DNA of 22,536 nucleotides from a virus: the IMG/VR virus record IMGVR_UViG_3300045146_000152, positions 1 through 22,536 of that record; one strand, given 5' to 3'. This document shows, in pieces, positions 1 through 22,480 of the stretch; within the stretch, counting starts at the first letter, position 1; every line of letters starts with the position of its first letter. Both the position numbers and the translations under genes were made by a program. The notes beneath the pieces were generated by a model. The model worked only from the letters and a program-made list of their open reading frames with translations. It ran no database searches and was not told where the DNA came from.

Positions 1-127
1 TAAGATTAGATTTTAACCATTTTACTACATTGGGGTTATTAACTGTCTGGGACAAATCTACTATAAATTGGTCTATAGTATCTAAATTATAGATATTACG
101 TTCTAGTAGGTAGTTTAGTAGTCTCAT
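1..127 (-). CDS. Partial CDS, N-terminus of unknown protein with capsid-targeting-like leader
   Basis: Only the first 42 codons are in the window; the gene runs off the left edge. The ATG at 125-127 overlaps the TGA of the giant upstream gene as ATGA, so the two are probably translationally coupled, with an AGGA about 10 bases upstream. The visible protein starts MRLLNYLLERNIYN and continues as a mostly helical stretch. I do not recognise the family. The first nine residues, MRLLNYLLE, closely resemble the start of the repeat protein at 5001-5762 (MKLLSYLTE). They also look like T4 capsid-targeting peptides, which end in a prohead protease site of the form (L/I)xE. That function is inference. 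The start is well supported; the product is unknown. Confidence 0.7.
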   Translation of the reverse strand, partial: MRLLNYLLERNIYNLDTIDQFIVDLSQTVNNPNVVKWLKSNL

Positions 128-3100
128 AACTTATTTATCCTGTATAATATTGTTAAATCGGTTCTATCAGACTTATATAGTTCACTATCTGGTTTAACAT
201 ATGTATAAAAAGCCAAATCATTATTAGCTGTAAATAATCCCATTTCTGTTATTGATTTTGCTGTGAAATGTTCTCGTACATTACCTTTTATGTAATAATG
301 TCCACCATCTTCTGTCACACTTAAATTATTTCCCAATAGAGGTGTTATATCAACTATACTGTTATTAGCCTCTGCATCCCAAGTATCTGTATTTTCACCA
401 TCACCCACTTTTATATAACCACCATTAGCAAAGGAATCTACTAGATATTGTGTTGTAAATGGGCTGCCAACATCTGTCACTATAGCATAACCACTTAGTG
501 ACTCACTAAAAGTTATTGTACATTTCTTCTCGTGATTATAAAGTTTTATATTAAGTGGTAATATTCTATTATGGTCTCCGTCAAAACAATCAACAAATAC
601 ACCATAATGTTCTAGATTATGTTCCACTTCCCAGGTATCTGCCGAAACAGACTGAACGTGTAAGTATTCATAATCTCTTATATTACAATATCCCAATGTT
701 GGTACATACCAATTAGTGCTGATAATATTAGCTGTATCGGCACGAACTGTATCGGGTAAAATTTGTTTATAGTTATAGAAATAATGATCGGCAAATACCA
801 ACACCTTATTAAGATTGTGTGGCATTACCCAATTATCATTGTCGCCAAAAAAACTCCCACCATATTCTATTTCACCATATTCGGGAAGTATGTCGCCGGC
901 CTCATCAAGATTTACGAAATTATATTGTGACTTTTTAATAAAAACCCTGCCGGCTTGATTGGAATAGAATTCTATATTCACTTCATTTTCATTTATTATT
1001 ATTACATTGGCTGGATAAAGCAAATCATTATTCATATCATAACATTGTACCAATATATTTCTAGTATTTAAATTATGAATTATATTCCATTTCATAGTTG
1101 GATCAAGTCTGGTATATACGTAACCAGCACTTGATGTGGTTGTGTCCAGACAACATCTTGTATATATGCCCGAATAATCATATTGATTATCATATAAGTC
1201 AATTTCATTACCAGAAAAATCTGTTTTGGGCGATACAAGAATATTATAATGTGAAAATTTACTTACCGGTCTAGCAAGCTCCCAATTATCTAATAATATT
1301 TCTAGTGTATCACTTTTAAGTATATCTGGATTGGATAATGGTTCACAATTTACATCTATTTCAACTTTATAATGTGGTGACTGTATAAGATTTCCGCCAT
1401 ATGTCAGTTGTCCTATTTCTTTAACAACCGCATAGCCATCTGCGCTTGTTGAAAAAGTTGCAATATTTGTATCTTGGTCATATATTATTACATTGTCTGG
1501 TTCTGCTCTATATATGTGTTTTGCTGTAGTATCGGCAATACTTACTAAAGCATAGCCTATATTTCCCGATGTGGCAAATGTAGCAACAAAATCTGCTGAT
1601 GATGTAAGAGACATAGTATTTGGTCTTTCTTTTGTTACTGGTGTAATAATAAGATCGTCTGCTATTTTAACAGATACATAGCCATTAATTGGTTTATCAT
1701 GTATAATTTCCAACCAATTTTTATTGTATAATCTACAATGTGGGGGATCAATCTCAAATAGTGTTGGATATATTCCCTTAACTGATAAATATCCCGATAC
1801 GGGATAACTGAAAACCGCTCTACAGCTTATATCATCTATAATTTCAACTGAATCTGGTTCCATTACAACAAAACTATTATTGAACGCCTGGGTTATAATA
1901 CCGGGTTTACCAAGATTATGTGTAATATTCCAAGCACTAGTGGGTATGGATTGAACATGTAGATAATCCGGTGGAACACAAATACATTTGCCCGCCACCG
2001 GAGTTATAAACGATGCTTGTAGATTATTATGGTTTATTAGTTGTATCGCAGACGGCGATATCATGTTATTATTATCATCATAATATTGTGATATTGAGAG
2101 TTTATTGCCTATATTATGCGCCACATTCCAAGTTGATGCCGTCACTGCTTGGGTCACTGTTGTTCCTGGCTGAATACACACAAAACCACTTGTACTACTA
2201 ATAAAATCTATAGTTATAGTATTGCCATCATTGTTAATATTGTTTGGTGTTAGTTTATTTCTATTATAATCATAGCAAGCTACTAGTGTATTTTCTATAT
2301 TATGTCTAAGCAACCAGCTATTACCCTCAATTAAATGTGAATATACCGAATATATAATCTCATATGTATCCAAATTATGTTCAACCCACCATTTTGTGCT
2401 ATATTCTTCCTGGTGATGTAAATAATTTCCCCTAATTATCATCCCATATCCGGCATCCGGCGATGATAAAGTAACTATTAGTGTTTCTCCACCCTCTCTT
2501 ATTTCAATATTCTCTGGTATAAATACACTTTTTGGTGAATATGTTTGGTATTGGCTAATAACATCGTTTCTCACTTTAATTATAGGCGTAGTGTTTATAT
2601 CCCACCGTGCTGATGGCGATACAGACTCAAAAACTTGATCTGCCCTACAAATAACCATAAACCCCGATACATTTTCAGGAAAAGAAAGATAATATTTTTC
2701 ATGTTGGCAACTAAAATTATCTGGATATATTTGGTATCTGTCCGAATCAAAGCATTTCACTATACTATTATCATACAAATCTCCTATTTCCCAAATATTA
2801 TTACTGTCGGATATATAAAATTGTGCTATGACTTCTTTTTGGCCAAGATTATGTTCTATATTCCAGATATTGGATTTTTCTATTATTTTCTGTGTATAAT
2901 CAGGAATTTTACCATTAAAAACGCCACTTATAGGCATTGAAGTTGTAACTTTTATATTACCAGCTCCACCATATGAATCTTCGGTGAGATAGTCTAATAT
3001 TACATTTTCGCCATGATATATATAGTTGCTAAGGTAATGTCCAGACAATGCAGTACTAAAGAACCAAGTTGATGATGCGGGTAAAGAAATTGTTTCATTT

Positions 3101-4977
3101 GTAACTAATAGTGAAACAAACCCCTTTTCTGGTCTAGCAAATTTTATCACCAACATTTTGCTATTAACTATTATTATAGCTATTGGATAGATAATGTTTC
3201 CATTACTATCAAATGTTTGTACGATTAAGCTTTCTGTATCAAGATTATGTGATATTCTCCATTCATCAACTGGTCTGGTGCAATAAAAATCTAGTGCGAC
3301 TGCACGAGAATCAAGATTGTGTTCTATTGTCCAATGTGTATCGGGATATTTCTGTGTATGTAAATAATTACCACTAACCGCTATCACCATCATATCATCA
3401 AGATAAGCTGTGCCAAATAACATTCCACCAAAACCACTTGGTGATATCGAATAGTTTAGTAAATTTATAGCGGTATAATCAACAGTATCATAAGCTCCGA
3501 CTATAGGTGTTAATGTATCAAGATCATGCTCTATAAAATTATTTAAAGTTTCTTCCGATACAAACCACCCTGGATCAACTAACCATCCGGGGGAATCAAA
3601 CCAGCCCGCATACGTTGCCGATACTGGGTCCGATTCTACAGTTGAACTTTCTGGTAAAATAAGTAGGGCGGTGCCCTTATAGTTAGAATTGAAAGTTATT
3701 CTTACTAGATAGTTTTGTAAGCTTTCTATATTAGTTGGTATAATAAGATTAAAATTTTCATCATAACACCTTATAAGAGGAAATCTGGTTTCCAAATTAT
3801 GCATTATCAGCCACGATGAATTGGGAAGTCTTTGTGTGTGAATATAACAATTTGATAATGGAACTGGGTATCCACCCGCATTTATTAAAGAATGATAACC
3901 CGCAGATACACAAGTATTAGGTGTATCACCATAATAATTTAAATAATTTATATCTACGAAATGATTAAGTGGTACCTGTGGTAATGCATTGGGATTTTCT
4001 GGATATCCATTGCAAATATCTTCGTTGTGCCACCTTTCATAGATACTAATTTTATCAGTAGTGTTCCAAAAGAAATTCTTAAATATAGTATATAATGAAG
4101 AATATGTTCCTTTTTTCTTTAAAAAATTTGGTAGTTCTCTTACATATTCCCGCATTCGTCTTTCTTTTAGTCTGGTTTCTTGTGAATTTTGGTCAACAAA
4201 CAGACTGTCTAAGTATTCCTTATTAAGTTCTATATTATACAACCCAGCTAGGTAAGTAATAAAATTTAGGTCTATTTCTAGTGCATCTAATAATGTTATA
4301 ACATTTTTTTTCTTATTGTAAATCTTATTGTGTATTTTATCAAAATAAATATCAAAAAATTCTTTAATATTATCTGTTTGTAGATGTATTGGCAAACAAT
4401 TTAAAACATATCTATCCATACCATAGTATTCTATACGATAGTTATTACTACGGCCGAACCAGTATGTTCCATAATGGAAGGTTCCATAAGTGGTGTATGG
4501 GCAGTCTTCAGAGTAAATTTTGCCAAGATACAAAAATGGTTTTTCTGTATTTACAAAATCCAAAGTATCTGGTTCTATATCAGACCTTATTCTAAGATAT
4601 GAATCGAATGATATGGCGTTATAACTATTATTACCATCTGTTCTAGTTTCGTCATATATAGAACTTTTTCTAAGATAGACTGTGCTTTCATCGTCTATTT
4701 CTATTGCACTTGTGGCCGAAGTTTCTAGTGTATTTAATCTATTTACATAGAAGAAATTATCATTATAAGATGGATTAATAGGTGCAAATGGAATTGAATA
4801 CAGCTCGGTATAAGTTGTATTGTTTTCGTATTTCTTTTCTACTACTAAATCGAAATATGATGCCGATAATGCTTCTATATCATCAAGAAAATCACTATCG
4901 TTTATATATAACACACCATTTAACACATCAAAAAATTCTTGTAATAGAAATCTAGGCGATTCTGTGAATTTTGGCAA
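124..4977 (-). CDS. Giant baseplate wedge/adhesin fusion protein (gp7 or gpI position)
   Basis: This 1617-residue protein follows the gp6-like gene and one inserted gene, the place held by gp7 in T4 and gpI in P2/Mu-type tails. Residues 1-310 look like a baseplate-anchoring region. It includes a helical segment (about 203-305) with ELPNFLKKKGT at 281-291, which resembles the conserved KGT stretch of tail protein I families. From about 378 to 1505 there are at least eleven copies of a roughly 60-residue beta-rich unit marked by W-x-(I/V)-x-H-N-(L/I). The HN positions are H393, H553, H577, H709, H867, H892, H954, H1020, H1301, H1387 and H1453. Copies are often preceded by YLHxQ and followed by YD..., P..I and an aromatic/G near the end. 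The C-terminus (about 1510-1617) contains ITEMGLF, as in tail-collar fibre attachment regions. The start is TTG at 4975-4977; an in-frame TAA lies at 4990-4992 and AGAGG sits 8 bases upstream. Likely a wedge component carrying receptor- or glycan-binding domains. Confidence 0.75.
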   Translation of the reverse strand: MPKFTESPRFLLQEFFDVLNGVLYINDSDFLDDIEALSASYFDLVVEKKYENNTTYTELYSIPFAPINPSYNDNFFYVNRLNTLETSATSAIEIDDESTVYLRKSSIYDETRTDGNNSYNAISFDSYLRIRSDIEPDTLDFVNTEKPFLYLGKIYSEDCPYTTYGTFHYGTYWFGRSNNYRIEYYGMDRYVLNCLPIHLQTDNIKEFFDIYFDKIHNKIYNKKKNVITLLDALEIDLNFITYLAGLYNIELNKEYLDSLFVDQNSQETRLKERRMREYVRELPNFLKKKGTYSSLYTIFKNFFWNTTDKISIYERWHNEDICNGYPENPNALPQVPLNHFVDINYLNYYGDTPNTCVSAGYHSLINAGGYPVPLSNCYIHTQRLPNSSWLIMHNLETRFPLIRCYDENFNLIIPTNIESLQNYLVRITFNSNYKGTALLILPESSTVESDPVSATYAGWFDSPGWLVDPGWFVSEETLNNFIEHDLDTLTPIVGAYDTVDYTAINLLNYSISPSGFGGMLFGTAYLDDMMVIAVSGNYLHTQKYPDTHWTIEHNLDSRAVALDFYCTRPVDEWRISHNLDTESLIVQTFDSNGNIIYPIAIIIVNSKMLVIKFARPEKGFVSLLVTNETISLPASSTWFFSTALSGHYLSNYIYHGENVILDYLTEDSYGGAGNIKVTTSMPISGVFNGKIPDYTQKIIEKSNIWNIEHNLGQKEVIAQFYISDSNNIWEIGDLYDNSIVKCFDSDRYQIYPDNFSCQHEKYYLSFPENVSGFMVICRADQVFESVSPSARWDINTTPIIKVRNDVISQYQTYSPKSVFIPENIEIREGGETLIVTLSSPDAGYGMIIRGNYLHHQEEYSTKWWVEHNLDTYEIIYSVYSHLIEGNSWLLRHNIENTLVACYDYNRNKLTPNNINNDGNTITIDFISSTSGFVCIQPGTTVTQAVTASTWNVAHNIGNKLSISQYYDDNNNMISPSAIQLINHNNLQASFITPVAGKCICVPPDYLHVQSIPTSAWNITHNLGKPGIITQAFNNSFVVMEPDSVEIIDDISCRAVFSYPVSGYLSVKGIYPTLFEIDPPHCRLYNKNWLEIIHDKPINGYVSVKIADDLIITPVTKERPNTMSLTSSADFVATFATSGNIGYALVSIADTTAKHIYRAEPDNVIIYDQDTNIATFSTSADGYAVVKEIGQLTYGGNLIQSPHYKVEIDVNCEPLSNPDILKSDTLEILLDNWELARPVSKFSHYNILVSPKTDFSGNEIDLYDNQYDYSGIYTRCCLDTTTSSAGYVYTRLDPTMKWNIIHNLNTRNILVQCYDMNNDLLYPANVIIINENEVNIEFYSNQAGRVFIKKSQYNFVNLDEAGDILPEYGEIEYGGSFFGDNDNWVMPHNLNKVLVFADHYFYNYKQILPDTVRADTANIISTNWYVPTLGYCNIRDYEYLHVQSVSADTWEVEHNLEHYGVFVDCFDGDHNRILPLNIKLYNHEKKCTITFSESLSGYAIVTDVGSPFTTQYLVDSFANGGYIKVGDGENTDTWDAEANNSIVDITPLLGNNLSVTEDGGHYYIKGNVREHFTAKSITEMGLFTANNDLAFYTYVKPDSELYKSDRTDLTILYRINKL
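463..3846 (-). repeat. Tandem protein repeats with WxIxHNL motif (11 or more copies)
   Basis: This is the part of the giant tail gene that encodes the repeated beta-rich unit. Each unit has a Trp, then HN(L/I) four to five residues later, a hydrophobic strand ending in YD or FD, a P-x-x-I strand, and a final G-aromatic strand. Units are diverged in protein and DNA, so this is old duplication and not recent expansion. Spacing is irregular: pairs are as close as 24 residues (553/577 and 867/892), and gaps reach about 280 residues (1020-1301). The large gaps contain degenerate units such as EHDLD near residue 483. Confidence 0.7.
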
Positions 4978-5000: not shown

Positions 5001-5762
5001 TTATTTTATTACAACTTTGTATTTATTATCATATTTCTTGAATATTTCATATTGTCTTTTATTAATAAGCAAACTACCACCAATAATTATATCATTTGGT
5101 ATTTCTTCTAGTGATGTATTATATAAATCTAAATTGCCATTTATTACAGTTTTATTATTTATTTTTTCAATATTACTAACACATAAATAACAATTGCCTT
5201 TTACTACCAGTCCTTTACCTATTTTTTTAATATTACTAAAAGATAAATCTAAATCACCACCAATACTAACATTATCTAGTAGTTCTTCTATTGGTGTATC
5301 AGATAAATCACAATTGCCCTTTACTACTAAATTCTTACCTATTTTCTTAATATTACTACCAGTTAAATCCAAACTACCACCAAAAGTCATATTATTTGGT
5401 ATTTCAATTATTGGCGTATTATGTAAATCACAATCACCTTTTACTATTAATTTACTACTTATTTTCTTAATTTTACTATCAGACAAATCTAAATCGCCGC
5501 TAATTATCATACTATATAGTATTTCTTCAATTGGTGTATTAAACATGTTACAATCACCTTTTACTATTAGGTTGTTGCCTATTTTTTTAATATCACTAAA
5601 AGATAGATCTAGATTACCATTAATAGTTACATTATCTGGTATTTTAGTTGTATTACTAAAAGATAAATCTAAATTACTATCTACTATCATACCACTTACT
5701 AGTTTAATATTATGTTCAGATTCAGTTGTTGATGTCTCTGTTAAATAACTTAATAACTTCAT
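5001..5762 (-). CDS. Solenoid protein of 20-residue LDLS repeats with capsid-targeting-like leader
   Basis: A 253-residue protein made almost entirely of about ten 20-residue units of the form G(N/D)(L/C)DLS-x-(S/T)-x-I-(K/E)-(K/E)-I. The final unit is degenerate (GSLLINKRQYEIF). The repeats alternate between a GDLDLSFSNIKKIG type and a GNCDLSDTPIEEL type, giving a 40-residue super-repeat. This predicts a right-handed beta-solenoid or leucine-rich-like fold; similar repeats are common in large phage genomes without a firm function. The ATG at 5760-5762 has GGGGG four bases upstream and is preferred over an in-frame GTG at 5784-5786 that would add eight residues across the ribosome binding site. 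The N-terminus MKLLSYLTE resembles a capsid-targeting peptide with an LxE cleavage site. The gene interrupts the usual gp6-gp7 order, and its upstream junction carries a duplication of the gp6-like 3' end. Confidence 0.8.
   Translation of the reverse strand: MKLLSYLTETSTTESEHNIKLVSGMIVDSNLDLSFSNTTKIPDNVTINGNLDLSFSDIKKIGNNLIVKGDCNMFNTPIEEILYSMIISGDLDLSDSKIKKISSKLIVKGDCDLHNTPIIEIPNNMTFGGSLDLTGSNIKKIGKNLVVKGNCDLSDTPIEELLDNVSIGGDLDLSFSNIKKIGKGLVVKGNCYLCVSNIEKINNKTVINGNLDLYNTSLEEIPNDIIIGGSLLINKRQYEIFKKYDNKYKVVIK
5066..5678 (-). repeat. Coding tandem repeat, 60-base unit in 120-base super-repeat
   Basis: The DNA of the solenoid gene shows a clear 120-base periodicity. Blocks such as TTTACTACTA..ATT..TACCTATTTT (plus-strand reading) recur every two units, and the two 60-base halves differ more from one another. 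Recurrence at the DNA level points to expansion by slippage or unequal recombination more recently than the repeats of the giant gene. Confidence 0.75.
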
Positions 5763-5775
5763 TATACCCCCAAAA

Positions 5776-5915
5776 AATACAATCACCCAAACTTAACATT
5801 GGGTAATGGCCAAATAGAAAAAATTAGTAACATGAATATTGGTGATAAGTGATCTGATAATTTCATTATGTTTCTTCAAAAAAATTACAATTAACCAGAC
5901 TTAACATTGGGTACT
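5776..5915. repeat. Direct duplication of gp6-like 3' end and following gene start
   Basis: Two copies on the minus strand: one at about 5910-5850 (end of the gp6-like gene through its TAATG) and one at about 5810-5745 (leading into the solenoid gene). Both contain TACCCAATGTTAAGT, then TGG or GGG, ATTGTA, a run of T and ATAATGAA(A/G)TTAT. Read in the gp6 frame, the second copy gives YPMLSLGDC against YPMLSLVNC. The arrangement shows that the junction was duplicated. Confidence 0.7.
5783..5866 (-). CDS. Possible 27-residue ORF (TAATG-coupled), perhaps relic of duplicated gene start
   Basis: The ATG at 5864-5866 overlaps the TAA of the gp6-like gene as TAATG. It opens a 27-codon frame that starts MKLSDHLSPIFML, is hydrophobic in the middle and ends in a TGA at 5783-5785. 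The start resembles that of the next gene (MKLLSYLTE), and the surrounding DNA is a second copy of the same junction. It could be a real tiny coupled peptide. More likely it is what remains of a second copy of the downstream gene. It lacks the LxE end seen in the other leaders. Confidence 0.3.
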   Translation of the reverse strand: MKLSDHLSPIFMLLIFSIWPLPNVKFG

Positions 5916-12837: not shown

Positions 12838-15315
12838 TTATGCTACTCCTGTTACATAGTTAAGAATACCAACAGCTAATGTTGCTATTGAATCTTGATG
12901 TATTGTTGGTCCAAAACTTTTACTTGTTTGATCTCCTTGTTGTTGACCAATACTTTGGTTATTTAATTGTAAGTTATTTTGTGGTAATGTTTCTAATTGT
13001 AATTTACCTCCCATACCACGCAAGAAATCATTATTATTTTTCATCATGTCTATCTGTTCTTTTTTAAATATTGATTCCTCTTTATTTTTTGCTGCTTCTA
13101 TTGAACTAAGTTGTGTTCCTTTTTCTGTAGCTTTCCAATTTTCTAATAATCCATCTTTTTTTAAATAGTTTAATGTTCCCATAATATTTTCTACAAATTT
13201 TAATGTCTCTTCATTACGTGGAATTCCGCCGGCTCTTTTTACACTTCCCGGCCCGGCATTATAACCAGCAGCAACTAATGCAGGATCATTTCCTATGTAT
13301 GGTAGGGACTGTAAATATTTGATATATTTTATACCACCAATAATATTCTGGTCTAAATTACGGGGATCAACTCCCATATCTTTAGCAGTATCTGGCATCA
13401 GTTGCATTACCCCCATTGCCCCTTTGGAACTATCTTTGATATTAGGATTAAAATTTGATTCATGCCGCGCAATAGCATGTGCTAATTTTGGATCAACACC
13501 ATATTCTTGAGCATATTTAGTTATCCTATCCATAACAGTTTGTCTATCAACAGAATATTTACTCGGATCAATACCAAACGATGTTGCAAGGCCGCCCCCA
13601 AAACTACCTGTTGATAAAAAATTTGATGTAAAACTTTTATCACCTATAATATTCATGAATCCTTCCCACAACTTGCCCCAAAATCCTTTGTCATCTGTGT
13701 TTTTGATAGCTTCAACAACATTACTTGTTTTTTCATCTGGATGTTTACTAAAATAGTCCTCTTGTGATTTTAAATAGCTTTTACCTATTAAATTGGCAAA
13801 TATATTACCTTTTTCATCGGCAAATAAAAAAGTACGTTTTAATAAATTACTAAGTTTTAGTTCTTCTTTACTTTCACCCTCATCTTGAATTTGTGAAGTT
13901 GCGGACTCGGCAGAACCATATTCTTGCATTTGTTTAGCAAATTCTGGATTTTTAAGAAGATAATCAGTAGTATAATATGCTAAACCGGCTTGTGTTACTA
14001 ATAATGCTGCAATAGCTGCAATAGGTAAAGCAGATAGTAAACTTAGAAGTATAGTTGGTGACCATGCGGCCGCAATACTTGCTCCCAATCCTGTTAGAAA
14101 TGGTTGTATATATTCCCACATTGGATATACGATACGATTCATAAATGATTCGCCAATTTTGGTCATTATGCCCCTTAGGAAACCACCACTGATTTTATTA
14201 TTACTAATACCGAGATATTTAAAAAATTCATTTTTAAAACCCGTAATATAATCTCCAATTTTACTTAAACTTTTTATTGCAATAAATATGTTTTTCATTA
14301 TATTAGAAAAAAAACCAAATATATTTTTTATTCTCTCAAAGAAATCTTTTATTTGAATTTTCATTATGGACTTTAAACTACTAGACAGTTTTTCCATTTT
14401 TATTTTTATTGTTTCTATAAATGTAACAGTTTTTTCACTAACTGGTTTAATAAATTCACTTTCAATTTTTTTATAGATTGGTGTTTCTGTTACAGCATCT
14501 TTAATTTCTTCTACAATTGGTTTTATTTTTTCTTCATAATATTTCTTAGTAGGTTTTATTGTTTGTTTATAAAAACCCGATGCAACAACAAAATCACTTA
14601 TAGATTGTGTAAAATTTTCTACAGATTCGGAAAATTTCTTTATTGGTTCTATGAAATATACTTTAAATGTCTCTGAAAATTTCTCCGATAAAAATGCATA
14701 AGTTTCCTTTGGATGTATGGCTGCTGCTATTAGAGTTTTGGAAATAGCACCTGTAGTTTCAACAATGGGTTTGGCTATACCCAACATCCATTTTATTGAT
14801 TTCCATATTTGACCAAAAATTAAAAATACCCAGGTTCTTAGTTTAGTCCATTTGTCTATTTGTTTCTCTGTCATAGGTGTAAAGGTTCTCAAAAAACTTT
14901 TAACTAAGTATTTACCTAATATAAGAAGAAATATATCTCTGGCCACTTTTCCTATAGTACGAATAATACCAACACCCATATCTTTCATCCATATTATTTC
15001 TTCACCAAAAACTTGTCTTAAATCACTTCTTACTTTATCTAAAAATACTTTCACATGTTCTTTAAGTGTTTTGAATGTATTAACAATAATAATACCAAGT
15101 TTGGTATCCATTAACATAGCCTCGGCCCATTTTTTTACTGGTACTTTTTTCTCAAATACACCTTCGTTATATTTTTTATGTAGTTTAATTCCCGAAACAA
15201 TACCAAGTCCAACTGCTGTTGTACTTGCAACAATTGTGGCTGTTTTTTTAATAAATTTTAACATTCCGGCATCAATTTTAAATTTATAATCTTTTTGTTT
15301 TTTTTCTTCTCTCAT
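12838..15315 (-). CDS. Tail tape measure protein with lytic transglycosylase (SLT) domain
   Basis: An 825-residue, largely helical, lysine-rich protein with hydrophobic segments at about 24-43 and 404-446, as expected for a tape measure ejected into the cell envelope. Residues about 587-699 form a complete SLT transglycosylase domain: catalytic Glu619 in ARHESNFNP, GAMGVMQLMP at 632-641 and AGYNAGPG at 683-690. It would cut peptidoglycan during DNA entry. A rule of about 0.15 nm per residue implies a tail near 120 nm (inference). The ATG at 15313-15315 has GGGGA four bases upstream. The gene follows the frameshifted gp26-type pair, as tape measures follow G/GT chaperones in other phages, and it is separated from them by a terminator hairpin. 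A Q/N-rich stretch (about 775-800) precedes the C-terminal helix. Confidence 0.85.
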   Translation of the reverse strand: MREEKKQKDYKFKIDAGMLKFIKKTATIVASTTAVGLGIVSGIKLHKKYNEGVFEKKVPVKKWAEAMLMDTKLGIIIVNTFKTLKEHVKVFLDKVRSDLRQVFGEEIIWMKDMGVGIIRTIGKVARDIFLLILGKYLVKSFLRTFTPMTEKQIDKWTKLRTWVFLIFGQIWKSIKWMLGIAKPIVETTGAISKTLIAAAIHPKETYAFLSEKFSETFKVYFIEPIKKFSESVENFTQSISDFVVASGFYKQTIKPTKKYYEEKIKPIVEEIKDAVTETPIYKKIESEFIKPVSEKTVTFIETIKIKMEKLSSSLKSIMKIQIKDFFERIKNIFGFFSNIMKNIFIAIKSLSKIGDYITGFKNEFFKYLGISNNKISGGFLRGIMTKIGESFMNRIVYPMWEYIQPFLTGLGASIAAAWSPTILLSLLSALPIAAIAALLVTQAGLAYYTTDYLLKNPEFAKQMQEYGSAESATSQIQDEGESKEELKLSNLLKRTFLFADEKGNIFANLIGKSYLKSQEDYFSKHPDEKTSNVVEAIKNTDDKGFWGKLWEGFMNIIGDKSFTSNFLSTGSFGGGLATSFGIDPSKYSVDRQTVMDRITKYAQEYGVDPKLAHAIARHESNFNPNIKDSSKGAMGVMQLMPDTAKDMGVDPRNLDQNIIGGIKYIKYLQSLPYIGNDPALVAAGYNAGPGSVKRAGGIPRNEETLKFVENIMGTLNYLKKDGLLENWKATEKGTQLSSIEAAKNKEESIFKKEQIDMMKNNNDFLRGMGGKLQLETLPQNNLQLNNQSIGQQQGDQTSKSFGPTIHQDSIATLAVGILNYVTGVA

Positions 15316-15331
15316 ATATTCCCCAATAAAA

Positions 15332-15367
15332 ATAGGGTCTTAAGGTTATTTCTCCTTAAGACCCTAT
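15332..15367 (-). terminator. Rho-independent terminator upstream of tape measure gene
   Basis: A perfect 14-base-pair stem (left arm 15332-15345, right arm 15354-15367) has an 8-base loop. On the minus strand it is followed by TTTTATT. It stands 17 bases upstream of the tape measure ATG and after the frameshifted chaperone stop. It probably ends most transcripts from the sheath-tube operon and keeps tape measure expression low. Confidence 0.8.
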
Positions 15368-15383
15368 AAGTCCATTAGATATT

Positions 15384-15566
15384 CTAAGTGGAGATACCAG
15401 ATTTTTCTTTTAGACTTTTTATAGCTAAATGTGTATATGCTATCCTTTCAAAATCCGGTAACAACGAACTTTCGGTTATACTTATACCACATATATATGA
15501 TAGGTAGTATTGTTCTTCTACTATATTCTCAATAGTAGCACCACCCGTAACAATTTCTCTTAGTTG
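15384..15566 (-). CDS. -1 frameshift extension of the gp26-type protein (tail assembly chaperone T-like part)
   Basis: A 60-codon frame in the -1 phase relative to the gp26-type gene runs from the slippery site to a TAG at 15384-15386. It has no ATG or GTG, only one internal TTG, and an in-frame TGA lies a few codons upstream of the slip site, so it cannot easily be translated on its own. The encoded tail starts QLREIVTGGATIENIVEEQY and contains a YYLSYICGISITESSLLPDF stretch then ERIAYTHLAIKSLKEK. This is helical, with the aromatic/LP-FER pattern common in tail chaperone T domains. The fusion would be about 301 residues against 242 for the unshifted product. By analogy with lambda G/GT, both forms would coat the tape measure during assembly. 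Alternatively it could be a decayed gp51-like gene. Confidence 0.7.
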   Translation of the reverse strand, partial: QLREIVTGGATIENIVEEQYYLSYICGISITESSLLPDFERIAYTHLAIKSLKEKSGIST

Positions 15567-16288
15567 AAAAAATTTTCTACTGGAACCTCAATTTTTCGTT
15601 CTGCACCACAATGAGGACACTTAATATCAAAGTTGAAATCAACACCAAATTCTAAATCATCATACCACTTTACTAGATTGTCATAGAAGAAGCTAGGCCC
15701 TTCTTTAAATAATATTGTTTTATCTTCTAGTAATGGATTTTCTACTTGTTCTTCTGGTGTTATTATTTTTTTTATGCCAGATATATAAGTAAGAATATTT
15801 TCTTCTAAGACTTTATCCTTTTCTTTCACATTACCATTTTTTATTTCTTTTGCAACAATACCTTTAACTATTTTTTGATGATTTCTAGTAAGAAGTTCAA
15901 CTTCTACTGATATATTATCATCTAGTTTAACCACATAATCAAGTTTCTTAAGTTTCTTGACCTTAAGTTTACCTAGATCAAGTTTATCTATGACTTGAGA
16001 TTTACAATTATCACAGTCGTAGGTTATCTCGTTCGTACTGCCCTTACTTTTTTTTCTAACTTCTATTAATAGAAAAAACCTATCTTGTAGTGGAATATCT
16101 TCTACTTTAAAATCTTCGGTAATGACACAAGAATTTATAAGATTATCCAATCCATCTTCTTCATCACCATCAAATGAAAGCAGTTCTTTCATTTGATATG
16201 TAGTAATTGGTCTAAATTTTACCTCTTTTCCACAACCAGGTAAAACCGTGGTAAACTGATAAACATTTAAATACTTCTTTAATTCCAT
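15560..16288 (-). CDS. gp26-type baseplate hub assembly/tail chaperone protein with zinc ribbon
   Basis: A 242-residue protein between the tail tube and the tape measure. It resembles the T4 gp26 family (T4_baseplate). The pattern is an N-terminal strand region with GKEVKFRPITTYQMKELL at 20-37, a helical middle, and two CxxC pairs at C92/C95 and C224/C227. The pairs (CDNC, CPHC) should bind one zinc ion. The C-terminus VENFFN lies on a slippery run of T, and a second product of about 301 residues is predicted by -1 frameshift. Its place just before the tape measure matches lambda G/GT-type chaperones, so I favour a chaperone role. The start ATG at 16286-16288 lies three bases after the tube stop. 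Confidence 0.75.
   Translation of the reverse strand: MELKKYLNVYQFTTVLPGCGKEVKFRPITTYQMKELLSFDGDEEDGLDNLINSCVITEDFKVEDIPLQDRFFLLIEVRKKSKGSTNEITYDCDNCKSQVIDKLDLGKLKVKKLKKLDYVVKLDDNISVEVELLTRNHQKIVKGIVAKEIKNGNVKEKDKVLEENILTYISGIKKIITPEEQVENPLLEDKTILFKEGPSFFYDNLVKWYDDLEFGVDFNFDIKCPHCGAERKIEVPVENFFN
15566..15575 (-). promoter_or_regulatory. Programmed -1 ribosomal frameshift site
   Basis: In the zero frame the minus strand reads GAA AAT TTT TTC AAC TAA. Two overlapping canonical X-XXY-YYZ heptamers are present, A-AAT-TTT and T-TTT-TTC, directly before the stop. Slipping back one base at either leads into the open -1 frame. No strong stimulatory hairpin is obvious within the next 30 bases. Confidence 0.7.
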
Positions 16289-16291
16289 TTA

Positions 16292-16852
16292 TTATCCTCT
16301 TAATGCTTGAGATGGTGTATTTGCTGCTAATGTTTTGAAATATACATATGAATATGTTACATCAAACATAGCAAAGTCACTATTGGCATAATCTAATGAT
16401 ACTTCACCAACACTACTTGGCCAAGCATAATATAGATTATAGGCCATTAAATCGGTTAAATCTAAACCAATAAGTGTTACTGTTTGCACAGGAACCATAT
16501 ATTCATCTGGATAAGCATGTCGATTTGTAAGTGGATCCAAAATTAAATCCATCCAGTTAGCAAAGGCGGCTCTAATTTTAGCATCTTTATCTACAGTAAA
16601 ACTTACTGTCCATTGGTCATAATTCCTTTTACCGGCTGTTTTGAAATCAAATCCTTGCCACGAAGTTATCATTTCGTCAAAATTAGAACTTGGTAAACTA
16701 GAAGATCTTACAAGAAATTTTGCATCTTCTTGTACATTTTGTGTTAGTCCAGCAGGAAATGATGGTACTATATAAAATAGATAACTTCTGGCACCAGTTT
16801 TGAATTTATCTTTAAAGACATCAATATTTAATCCTTGAAGAGTTTGGGCCAT
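16292..16852 (-). CDS. Major tail tube protein, gp19-like
   Basis: A 186-residue tube-fold protein whose hexamers would stack to form the inner tail tube. Features of the gp19 family: an N-terminal helical start, SYLFYIVPSFP, LVRSSSLPSSNFDEMITSWQGFDFKTAGKRNYDQWTVSFTVD (the LP-S and W-G-x-x-x-K-x-AG motifs), and a final VGEVSLDYANSDFAMFDVTYSYVYF. T4 gp19 is 163 residues; this one has a slightly longer N-terminus and tail. It is downstream of the sheath in the same direction, separated by one small gene, and followed three bases later by the gp26-type gene. Confidence 0.9.
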   Translation of the reverse strand: MAQTLQGLNIDVFKDKFKTGARSYLFYIVPSFPAGLTQNVQEDAKFLVRSSSLPSSNFDEMITSWQGFDFKTAGKRNYDQWTVSFTVDKDAKIRAAFANWMDLILDPLTNRHAYPDEYMVPVQTVTLIGLDLTDLMAYNLYYAWPSSVGEVSLDYANSDFAMFDVTYSYVYFKTLAANTPSQALRG

Positions 16853-17219: not shown

Positions 17220-18992
17220 TTATACACTTTCACTAAAATCTGTCGTGTCTTTAGTTGCTACAAAAGTTATGATAATATAATCTGCCGCATAAGTTGGCTT
17301 GACATAAATATCAACCCACATTTCATTGCGGGCAATGCGTTCCGGGGTATTGTTGGTTGTATCACAGATTATTTTATAATCATCTATACCATCATTTGCT
17401 TTAGCATAGTTTAATACTGGCCTGATCTCACTTACTATAGCATTACGATGAAAAGTGTTATTGGACTCAAACAGATAGTTACGCGCTATGGAAGCAATAT
17501 CTGTTTCTATACTAATAAATAAACGTCTTACGTTTACTCTATTAAACGCACTATATTTATCTAACAGTGTTTTATGGCCATATACTACTTTACCCTGATT
17601 AGCAAATGATACAATAGGATTCCAGCTATATTTGTAAATGGCATCACGTTGTGTCTGTGTCGGATTCCAAGCCAAACGCCTAACATTATTTATTTTGCCA
17701 CGAATGAAACCGGCCGGCGTGCTCCAATATTGTGCCTGATTCTGGCATCTGGCATATATTGCGGCTACATAACCACTAGCGGGTATCCATCTATATTTAT
17801 TGTTATACTTATCATAAATATCAAGCCAATTAGCATATATTGCACCATAACTTGTATTTACTTCACTGTTTCCGCCGCGCCAAGAAATCATCCAGTCTCT
17901 TAGATTAGTTTCTTCTGAACCAGATTGATTAATCACATGTGTAGATAAGCAATCTAGCACGGCCATACAATCTTTTCTGGTTTTGGCCACTGTTACTATT
18001 TCTGTTTTTACTGCTTCTGGTTTGTCACTATCAATAATAACATCTAGATTTATTTCTTCGGCATTATTATATAAATCCACAGCAGCAATTATTGTTGCAT
18101 CCGGCACAGTAGCATTTGTAACAGCATTAGTTAAATTGGTAGCTGTATTGTTATTACTTCCACCACTTAATCTCTGCCATGCAGATGTAACAAAATTTAC
18201 AATATTGGTGTTATTATAACTACCATTAAACGATACTCTAATATATTGCGAATTTGTATTTATAACATTTTCTACATACATGGGCTGTCCAACATCATCA
18301 TATTTATTTTCATCTGTAGATACATTCCACCATTCTACAGTTGACCAGTTGGACTCGGTATCGGCATCATATCCCTGGGTGCATTCTTGTACTATTACAA
18401 TAAACTCTTTATTAGAATCCAATGGTGCATCTACAGCATATAATGATGAGTATGTATCCCATGCAGTATAATTTTTTTGTCTGATTAAATCATAATGTGT
18501 TTTATCGCATACTGCAATTCTTAGCATGTTGCCGCAGTAACCACGATCTTTACAAATAACCTTCATCATATCAGTACCAGATACAACAGCATAATCTGGA
18601 TATTCATCTGGGTCTACTACTTGTCCTACACCACTACTTAAAATGGGCGCATTATTGAAGGTGAATGCGGTAAATGTTGCACTAGTTCCACTTGTAGCTG
18701 TAGTGCCAGCAAAAGTAGCACTTATCGGCATTGTTCTAGTACAATAAAGATTGTTAGACTCCTTTAGGAAAGCGATAGCCGAAAATATATCTCTATAACA
18801 GTCGGCATTTGAAGATGGGCTTCCAAATTTAGTTACCAATTCTGTTTCAGTCGCAATCAAAATTTTGTCATTTTCTCTACCTTTATAGGTATTTCTCAAA
18901 ACAACGGCACCTACTGGCCCGGATGCTTCACCCACAAAAGTAGTTTTGTCAACTTCCTCAAAATATACTTGAGGACTAACTAATGTTGGCAT
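17220..18992 (-). CDS. Tail sheath protein, gp18-like
   Basis: A 590-residue contractile sheath subunit. The N-terminus MPTLVSPQVYFEEVDKT and the following GPVGAVVLRNTYKGREND are family-typical. The C-terminal domain is clearly conserved: NNTFHRNAIVSEIRPVL, then IICDTTNNTPERIARNEMWVDIYVKPTYAADYIIITFVAT. This region holds the handshake strands that link subunits to each other. Sheath hexamers wrap the gp19-like tube and contract to drive it through the envelope. The ATG at 18990-18992 has GGAGGAG six bases upstream, a strong site for an abundant product. It is a little shorter than T4 gp18 (659 residues), mostly in the variable middle. Confidence 0.95.
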   Translation of the reverse strand: MPTLVSPQVYFEEVDKTTFVGEASGPVGAVVLRNTYKGRENDKILIATETELVTKFGSPSSNADCYRDIFSAIAFLKESNNLYCTRTMPISATFAGTTATSGTSATFTAFTFNNAPILSSGVGQVVDPDEYPDYAVVSGTDMMKVICKDRGYCGNMLRIAVCDKTHYDLIRQKNYTAWDTYSSLYAVDAPLDSNKEFIVIVQECTQGYDADTESNWSTVEWWNVSTDENKYDDVGQPMYVENVINTNSQYIRVSFNGSYNNTNIVNFVTSAWQRLSGGSNNNTATNLTNAVTNATVPDATIIAAVDLYNNAEEINLDVIIDSDKPEAVKTEIVTVAKTRKDCMAVLDCLSTHVINQSGSEETNLRDWMISWRGGNSEVNTSYGAIYANWLDIYDKYNNKYRWIPASGYVAAIYARCQNQAQYWSTPAGFIRGKINNVRRLAWNPTQTQRDAIYKYSWNPIVSFANQGKVVYGHKTLLDKYSAFNRVNVRRLFISIETDIASIARNYLFESNNTFHRNAIVSEIRPVLNYAKANDGIDDYKIICDTTNNTPERIARNEMWVDIYVKPTYAADYIIITFVATKDTTDFSESV

Positions 18993-19139: not shown

Positions 19140-19637
19140 TTATGAAATTTCTTCAGTTGATCCATAAACATCAAATCGACTATATTCAAATGTGGCAGTG
19201 CATTGTAAAAATTCTTCACCTGATTGATAAGTAAGTCTTACTTCCCCTATATTCTTAATCCAGACATTTTCGAAAAATATTCTAATAACTTCTTCATTGA
19301 AGTTATTTCTTATACTAAGTGTCGCACCTACATTATGTTCTGATGGTATAGTATGTTGTTCTGCTGCGTATTTAAGCCAATCATGTAAGGTGCGCCAATT
19401 ATCAAAATTTCTATCTACAAAAAAGCTAACTGTCCAATCTTGAAATGATACACCACCAGAGTTATCACGTCTGGCTACAACGCCCATCCAATTTGCATCT
19501 ATAGTGGTTACGTCCATAGATGGTATGACGGTTTCAAACAAATTAAGAATTACGTTCTTAGTTTGTGATACTGTTTTGTTGGGTATTTTTCCAATAATCA
19601 ACTCAAAATTAGTTGCATTAGCTTTATCAACAATCAT
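19140..19637 (-). CDS. Tube-fold tail protein, second gp19-like paralogue
   Basis: A 165-residue protein with the same strand order as the main tail tube. The shared features are FELIIGKIPNKTVSQTKN, LFETVIPSMDVTTIDANWMGV (the 'P-S...W-G' pattern), VSFQDWTVSFFVDRNFDNW (compare DQWTVSFTVD in the main tube), and a final IGEVRLTYQSGEEFLQCTATFEYSRF. Its start ATG at 19635-19637 directly abuts the stop of the preceding gene. It may be a minor tube subunit, such as a tube terminator or the first ring, or a second tube type. Its place before the sheath, apart from the main tube, suggests a distinct role. Confidence 0.75.
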   Translation of the reverse strand: MIVDKANATNFELIIGKIPNKTVSQTKNVILNLFETVIPSMDVTTIDANWMGVVARRDNSGGVSFQDWTVSFFVDRNFDNWRTLHDWLKYAAEQHTIPSEHNVGATLSIRNNFNEEVIRIFFENVWIKNIGEVRLTYQSGEEFLQCTATFEYSRFDVYGSTEEIS

Positions 19638-22411: not shown

Positions 22412-22449
22412 AAAAAAATCCCCGGATAGATTATATCTATCCGGGGATT
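22411..22449 (-). terminator. Strong rho-independent terminator of the upstream operon
   Basis: A perfect 15-base-pair stem with a 3-base centre (22417-22449), containing ATCCCCGGAT and its complement, is followed on the minus strand by a run of eight T (22418 to 22411). It lies about 30 bases after the stop of the gene at the right edge and separates it from speD. Read on the plus strand it has only a weak, delayed T-run. Confidence 0.9.
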
Positions 22450-22480
22450 TAGTTGGTTTTTTAGATTGTATTATTTACAA

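What the first reader, a model, noticed from the sequence alone, without database searches (positions are those of the whole stretch)
15384..16288. Programmed -1 frameshift extends the gp26-type protein into a tail-chaperone pair
Seen: the zero frame ends GAA AAT TTT TTC AAC TAA, holding two overlapping canonical slippery heptamers right at the stop. The -1 frame then stays open for 60 codons to 15384, with no ATG or GTG and an upstream in-frame stop, so it has no start of its own. Known: most long-tailed phages make a G and a G-T chaperone by frameshift just before the tape measure gene; in T4 this position is filled by genes 26 and 51 and no comparable shift is generally cited. Inference: the gp26 family here works as G, and the extension (EQYYLSYICGISITESSLLP...) is T. 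This would tie the T4-like gp26 family to the lambda G/GT system.
Basis: partly seen in the sequence, partly recalled or inferred. Interest (0 to 1): 0.82.

Follow-up and report, generated by a model that had tools for sequence, protein, structure and literature searches.

The report
Frameshifted tail chaperone in T4-like phage
A distant, uncultured relative of phage T4 appears to make two versions of its tail-building helper protein from one gene by letting some ribosomes slip back one base, as phage lambda does; the arrangement was already proposed for other T4 relatives, so this is a new and divergent example, not a new kind of system.

Summary
Observation confirmed; interpretation largely right but anticipated in print. 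The gp26-like ORF (16288..15560, minus; PF12322 E=1.7e-19) ends GAA AAT TTT TTC AAC TAA with overlapping heptamers A_AAT_TTT and T_TTT_TTC. The -1 frame runs 60 residues to TAG 15386..15384 without ATG/GTG, has coding-like codon use (0 of 1,234 off-frame windows match it), weakly but consistently resembles the gp51 C-terminus, and lies between tail-tube and putative tape-measure genes. In 97 of 97 frameshift-type loci the -1 frame is open; 90 have T_TTT_TTC one codon before the stop. Three phages with separate full-length gp51, T4 included, lack this site. The gp26 N-terminal model's best structural matches include the HK97 tail assembly chaperone. An SD-like GAGG lies upstream, as in 73 of 97 loci against 11% of control positions: probably a dnaX-like stimulator. 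Vladimirov et al. 2022 (seen only as cited) already named T4-like tail chaperones, with frameshifting in some groups. New here: a divergent lineage whose extension has no ordinary start, and the SD-like element. No frameshift product has been shown.

The parts
15560..16288 (-). gp26-like protein, 242 aa; short chaperone (G / TAC-N)
   Evidence: PF12322 E=1.7e-19, phrog_150 E=1.7e-23; N-terminal model ties first with 3fgx (Z 7.4) and HK97 tail assembly chaperone 2ob9 (Z 7.3)
15585..15589 (-). [quoted passage not shown]
   Evidence: an element of this kind in 73 of 97 loci against 2,030 of 18,825 control positions; function inferred
15566..15575 (-). slippery site AAATTTTTTC, two overlapping heptamers A_AAT_TTT and T_TTT_TTC
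   Evidence: T_TTT_TTC one codon before the stop in 90 of 97 loci
15560..15562 (-). zero-frame stop TAA, one codon after the slippery site
   Evidence: same distance in 92 of the 93 loci with a canonical heptamer
15384..15565 (-). -1 frame extension, 60 residues plus stop TAG (T / TAC-C, gp51 C-terminus-like); predicted helical
15332..15367 (-). terminator-like hairpin (14-bp perfect stem, 8-nt loop, T-rich tail) between the extension and the next gene
   Evidence: fold z -4.9, 0 of 200 shuffles as good
12838..15315 (-). putative tape measure protein, 825 aa, with lytic transglycosylase domain
   Evidence: PF01464 E=2.5e-21; tape-measure role inferred from position and size, no tape-measure family matched (one search showed the best 25 of 31 PHROG matches)
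16292..16852 (-). tail tube protein (gp19-like), directly upstream of gp26
   Evidence: PF06841 E=1.3e-7, phrog_45 E=3.5e-33
17220..18992 (-). tail sheath protein
   Evidence: PF17482/PF04984, phrog_23 E=5.7e-80

Best explanation
One gene gives two tail assembly chaperones. Most ribosomes stop at TAA 15562..15560 and make the 242-aa gp26-like short form. A minority slip back one base on A_AAT_TTT_TTC (T_TTT_TTC most likely), pass the stop and make a form of about 301 aa ending in a 60-residue helical domain related to the C-terminus of T4 gp51. By analogy with lambda gpG/gpGT, the short form would coat the tape measure protein encoded just downstream, and the extension of the rarer long form would recruit tail tube subunits. 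Shown here: the sequence anatomy, coding character, homology, conservation and fold similarity. Inferred: that slippage occurs, its frequency, stimulation by the upstream SD-like GAGGT, and the chaperone roles.
For: Site and open frame present and unlikely by chance. Extension coding-like and related to the gp51 C-terminus: best of 284 window ORFs and above 1,000 shuffles at 14.0 bits; 11.4 bits, 0 of 1,000 shuffles as good, in a leave-one-out test; hhalign probability 80, E 1.4e-5, 44 columns. In 97 of 97 frameshift-type loci the -1 frame is open from the gp26 end: 95 reach a stop after 54-65 codons, two run off the contig; 93 of 97 have a canonical heptamer. Kyanoviridae-like set, 53 representatives: Ser codon before the site T-ending 50 of 50 (62% in gene bodies), TTT then TTC 53 of 53 (Phe is TTC 26% in bodies); -1 frame differences by codon position 0.21/0.11/0.43, as in a coding frame. 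T4, DLP3 and SJ_PmiM, each with a separate gp26 and a full-length gp51, lack the site. One PF12322 copy in the 39.8-kb sister contig, so no separate fused copy seen. Best structural matches of 575 chains aligned: 3fgx Z 7.4, HK97 TAC 2ob9 Z 7.3, YqbN 3klu Z 6.8. Gene order tube - gp26 - extension - large SLT protein.
Against: No protein or reporter data. The extension's sequence similarity is weak taken alone: a profile search of the sister contig with A6 found nothing at E<=10, and Pfam, PHROGs and NCBIfam gave nothing usable. No close relative of this lineage was found, only an identical 39.8-kb contig, so conservation cannot be tested within it. No well-placed downstream structure: the best hairpin starts 19 nt after the site (z -2.2, 7 of 200 shuffles as good); folds including the site have z 0.3 and -1.3. 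Foldseek gave no PDB match at E<=0.001 for gp26 or the extension; Z under 8 is only moderate support. 24 of 97 loci have no SD-like element by the rule used.
Confidence: 0.9

Rival explanations
1. The extension is a separate small gp51-like protein translated by re-initiation or coupling after the gp26 stop, not by frameshifting.
For: Relatives annotate it as a separate gene: from an ATG in KVP40, phiM12 and P-HM1, from a TTG in PX29; 91 of 97 loci have an ATG in the early part of the extension.
Against: In this window and SRB7757 there is no ATG, GTG or TTG before the conserved motif; only rare codons such as ATT would serve. The -1 frame is open from the slippery site through the stop in 97 of 97 loci, and the synonymous positions of the site are fixed in the Kyanoviridae-like set. 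In T4, DLP3 and SJ_PmiM the C-terminus is fused to a gp26-like domain.
Confidence: 0.05
2. The frame change is made by RNA polymerase slippage on the T run.
For: There is a run of six T.
Against: Six is short for slippage (recalled). In Cygsa01, K393 and Marshall the run is four T and in Kuja five, while the -1 frame is still open; a T_TTY tetramer lies at the same codon.
Confidence: 0.03
3. Sequencing error or a broken gene: one original ORF split by an indel in a T run.
For: Homopolymer at the break; the only second copy is an identical contig, perhaps not independent.
Against: The same frame relation holds at the gp26 end in 96 other loci from many records.
Confidence: 0.02

Closest known systems
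T4-like tail assembly chaperones gp26/gp51 with frameshift in some groups (Vladimirov, Gautam & Davidson 2022, Virology 566:9-15; text not held, known here from citing papers PMC10274946 and PMC12846349 and from recall of its abstract)
   Same: PF12322 short form, poly-T -1 site at its end, gp51 C-terminus-like extension in the -1 frame
   Different: 23-29% identity to the gp26 homologues aligned here; no usable start codon in the extension before the motif; two overlapping heptamers; gp26 sits between the tube gene and a large SLT-domain gene
T4 genes 26 and 51
   Same: Same two domains
   Different: Separate, divergently transcribed genes; gp51 carries its own gp26-like domain and neither gene ends with a slippery site
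Lambda gpG/gpGT
   Same: Gene order, low-level -1 shift near the end of the short form (PMC5009743, passages), two products inferred here
   Different: Different slippery sequence (recalled); no sequence comparison with gpG or gpT was made
Vandenendeviridae/Andersonviridae TAC locus (PMC12846349, section 3.8.3 read)
   Same: Conserved -1 shift with a GTTTTT motif at the end of TAC-N
   Different: Other phage families; homology to this gene not tested
E. coli dnaX-type -1 signal
   Same: SD-like element upstream of the slippery heptamer
   Different: No well-placed downstream hairpin here

Membership tests
T4-like gp26 family (PF12322) | Profile match over the curated cut-off | tested here: met
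   70.9 bits against 24.5
T4-like TAC with frameshift | Slippery heptamer near the gp26 stop with open -1 frame | tested here: met
T4-like TAC with frameshift | -1 extension homologous to the gp51 C-terminus | tested here: met
   Weak but above the shuffle and ORF controls; a contig-level profile search missed it
T4-like TAC with frameshift | No separate full-length gene 51 | tested here: inconclusive
   One PF12322 copy in 39.8 kb; the genome is incomplete
Lambda-type G/GT tail assembly chaperones (function) | Gene between tail tube and tape measure genes | tested here: inconclusive
   Tube at 16292-16852 is met; the tape-measure role of the 825-aa SLT protein is inferred, no tape-measure family matched
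Lambda-type G/GT tail assembly chaperones (function) | TAC fold of the short form | tested here: met
   HK97 TAC 2ob9 Z 7.3 over 82 residues, rmsd 3.5, in the top three of 575; next rows 5.3 and 2.7; model pLDDT 70.5 and Z under 8, so moderate support
Lambda-type G/GT tail assembly chaperones (function) | Both products made at an unequal ratio and needed for tails | not testable with these tools
   Needs expression and genetics
[quoted passage not shown]
   GAGG at 14 nt (T_TTT_TTC) and 11 nt (A_AAT_TTT); rule as quoted in PMC4066793 (passages)
dnaX-type stimulated -1 site | Downstream stem-loop or pseudoknot close to the site | tested here: not met
   Best stem starts 19 nt downstream; pseudoknots not modelled

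The most novel reading that the evidence does not exclude
The frameshift of T4-superfamily tail chaperones is driven by a conserved two-part signal: a slippery site (T_TTT_TTC, or a T_TTY tetramer in outlying groups) fixed one codon before the stop, plus, in most members, an upstream SD-like GAGG kept at the synonymous level and acting on the elongating ribosome as in dnaX, without a downstream hairpin. This divergent lineage keeps the signal although it has no ordinary separate start for the gp51-like part.
Probability: 0.55. Interest if true: 0.45.

Novelty: new member of a known kind. Interest (0 to 1): 0.38.

Why it matters
It extends the frameshift-made tail chaperone to a divergent uncultured T4-like lineage. 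With SRB7757 it is one of two of 97 loci where no ATG, GTG or TTG before the conserved motif can explain the extension, so it argues for real frameshifting across the family. The SD-like element gives a simple, testable account of how the rate is set. Several public records that I saw annotate the extension as a separate gene; they probably need a joined CDS.

Tried and rejected
Close relatives were sought in IMG/VR with gp26, the extension and the tube protein: only the identical 39.8-kb contig. Sheath query: 13 further loci, none with a gp26 hit in the stretch fetched; BUCT-ZZ01, CP81 and phiLo likewise. gp26 of SRB7757 as query: no relative. tblastn of the extension in phages: one chance hit, E 8. 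PDB sequence search with the gp26 profile: two chance hits, E 0.17 and 0.52. Foldseek PDB: no match at E<=0.001 for either model; the HK97 chaperone was only rank 43 there, E 2.3. BFVD: 52 matches at E<=0.001, the best without a name (2.8e-12), many of the named ones being baseplate hub / gp26 proteins (from 3.6e-11), as expected from sequence. RNA structure as stimulator: not convincing. No variation between the two contigs to test selection. Resemblance of gp26 to lambda G itself was not tested.

Rows dropped or flawed: in A1 L008-L010 were cut short at the C-terminus; in A5 the L116 row was read from a wrong place and was left out of A6. For structure prediction only the window and every second usable IMG/VR locus (39 of 77) went into A3, and 28 of those 39 into A4. 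The ext HMM gave the DLP3 gp51 only 9.4 bits, below the best window shuffle (10.2); the leave-one-out HMM gave it 30.4.

Literature: the key paper (10.1016/j.virol.2021.11.003) is not held; its abstract, as I recall it, says frameshifting is conserved in several T4-like groups while T4 uses genes 26 and 51. The listings showed no title or abstract start about an SD-like stimulator for these genes; most of those papers I did not open, and the unread key paper may describe one.

Full report
What is there. On the minus strand a 242-aa ORF (16288..15560) matches PF12322, the T4 gp26 family (E=1.7e-19), and phrog_150. It ends GAA AAT TTT TTC AAC TAA, with heptamers A_AAT_TTT (15575..15569) and T_TTT_TTC (15572..15566) in the right phase. 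The -1 frame runs 60 residues past the slip to TAG 15386..15384. It has no ATG or GTG; a TTG occurs only at codon 33.

Chance. A 59-codon open run has probability 0.0025-0.0053 under first-order Markov models; 3 of 1,234 off-frame windows of that length inside the window's genes are stop-free; in-frame heptamers occur at 71 of 7,207 codons; of 19 genes only gp26 has heptamers within 6 nt of its stop. The extension scores 12.3 bits on the window's codon usage (in-frame windows mean 20.3, sd 6.7; 13% of in-frame windows score lower); 0 of 1,234 off-frame windows reach it. One antisense frame of the same stretch scores 8.4.

Homology of the extension. An HMM of 94 other extensions ranks the window extension first of 284 window ORFs of 30 aa or more, at 14.0 bits, above all 1,000 shuffles (best 10.2). 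The same HMM finds T4 gp51 (21.7 bits) and SJ_PmiM gp51 (34.1) at their C-termini, but DLP3 gp51 at only 9.4. Leaving each of 19 diverse members out in turn, the window scores 11.4 bits with 0 of 1,000 shuffles as good; it is second weakest, between Marzo (9.4, 2 shuffles as good) and Kuja (16.9). hhalign against 18 relatives gives probability 80 over 44 columns. Against this, a profile search of the sister contig with the same alignment returned nothing at E<=10.

Survey. 116 distinct loci were searched with a gp26 HMM. Sixteen, fetched through the sheath protein, had no hit. Three carry separate gp26 and gp51 genes (T4, Acinetobacter DLP3, Proteus SJ_PmiM): T4 and DLP3 have no heptamer in the last 60 nt of either gene, and the long -1 frames after their genes are the next overlapping genes; SJ_PmiM has heptamers 18 and 30 nt before its two stops, but its -1 frame closes within 2-4 codons. 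The other 97 (this window, 80 IMG/VR loci, 16 named records) all have the -1 frame open from the gp26 end; 95 reach a stop after 54-65 codons and two run off the contig. Ninety have T_TTT_TTC exactly one codon before the stop, one TTTTTTT and one TTTTTTA at the same place, one TTTTTTT a codon earlier; the other four (Cygsa01, Kuja, K393, Marshall) have only a T_TTY tetramer there. PMC4066793 (passages) lists U_UU.U_UU.C among motifs shifting at more than 0.10% in E. coli without stimulators and U_UU.[U,C] among the most shift-prone tetramers. Two of 97, this window and SRB7757, have no ATG, GTG or TTG before the motif; 91 of 97 have an ATG there.

Selection on the signal. In 53 representatives (85% identity) of the Kyanoviridae-like set of 83 (my label), 50 of 50 Ser codons before the site end in T (62% in gene bodies), and TTT TTC is fixed although Phe is TTC only 26% of the time in bodies. 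In 52 representatives with a full extension, differences by codon position in the -1 frame are 0.21, 0.11, 0.43, like those of gp26 itself (0.20, 0.13, 0.51). The stop is TAG in 76 of 83. The Glu codon eighth from the end is GAG in 42 of 53 representatives against 34% in bodies (p=1e-11), giving GAGG before the following Gly. [quoted passage not shown] 24 of 97 do not, among them OC, Marzo, phiM12, PhiW-14, K393 and Marshall. The window has GAGG at 14 nt, 11 nt counted from A_AAT_TTT; 8 of 212 positions in its own gp26 gene and 648 of 7,492 along its strand pass the same rule. By my count on the sequences the element lies 20 nt or more from the annotated gp51 starts of KVP40 and S-PRM1-like phages, too far to serve them, so a stimulator acting on the elongating ribosome is the likely role (inference). 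No downstream structure stands out.

Fold and context. The AlphaFold2 model of gp26 (pLDDT 70.5) has as best structural matches 3fgx (uncharacterised Bacillus protein, Z 7.4), HK97 tail assembly chaperone 2ob9 (Z 7.3, 82 residues) and YqbN 3klu (Z 6.8; a phage-type chaperone as I recall), all within residues 1-92; ranks 4 and 5 are at 5.3 and 2.7. Z under 8 and a non-significant Foldseek search make this moderate support. The extension is predicted helical, pLDDT 78, with no PDB match. Gene order is sheath, 99-aa protein, tail tube, gp26, extension, 825-aa SLT-domain protein, tail-tube-cap-like protein. An identical 39.8-kb contig adds, among 10 of its 16 long ORFs scanned, PHROG matches to a DnaB-like helicase, UvsY-like mediator, DNA helicase, HNH endonuclease, major head protein, scaffold and maturation protease, three having none; with PF12322 and the gp19-like tube this fits a divergent T4-type phage (inference). 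It holds one PF12322 copy.

Mechanism. Most ribosomes stop and make the short chaperone; a minority slip on the heptamer and make about 301 aa. By analogy with lambda (PMC5009743, passages) the short form would coat the tape measure and the extension would bring the tube protein. Slippage, its rate and both binding roles are inferred.

Known or new. The 2016 review excepted T4 from G-T frameshifting. Vladimirov et al. 2022 then named the T4-like chaperones; I saw only its title and citing passages, which state that some T4-like phages carry a short copy and a fused copy instead of a shift, and that poly-T signals are known in TAC-N genes of T4-like phages. This window is therefore a new, divergent member of a known kind. 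The SD-like element may be new, but the unread paper could contain it.

Noticed in passing
15332-15367 (-): A 14-bp perfect hairpin with a T-rich tail between the chaperone extension and the putative tape-measure gene; may lower transcription of that gene.
   Followed up: partly
22416-22450: A 16-bp perfect hairpin with T-rich flank, terminator-like, near the end of the window.
   Followed up: no
16292-16852 and 19140-19637 (-): Two tail-tube-like (gp19 / phrog_45) proteins, one on each side of the sheath gene; KVP40 is also annotated with a duplicated tube protein.
   Followed up: no
5001-5786 (-): 261-aa protein of repeated LDLSFSDIKKIGNNLIVKGDC-like units, with a 184-aa open frame on the opposite strand (5194-5748).
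   Followed up: no
124-4977 (-): 1,617-aa repetitive protein with many W-x-x-x-HNL-like motifs and weakly named PHROG matches.
   Followed up: no
L122:8748-10415: HNH/homing-endonuclease-like ORF of 556 aa next to the major head protein in the sister contig.
   Followed up: no
L112, L114, L115, L117: Marshall, K393, Kuja and Cygsa01 keep the open -1 frame but have only a T_TTY tetramer, not a heptamer, at the gp26 end.
   Followed up: partly
L006, L009, L010, L030-L109, gp26 ends: The zero-frame stop is TAG in 76 of 83 Kyanoviridae-like loci, probably fixed by the -1 frame or by termination kinetics.
   Followed up: partly
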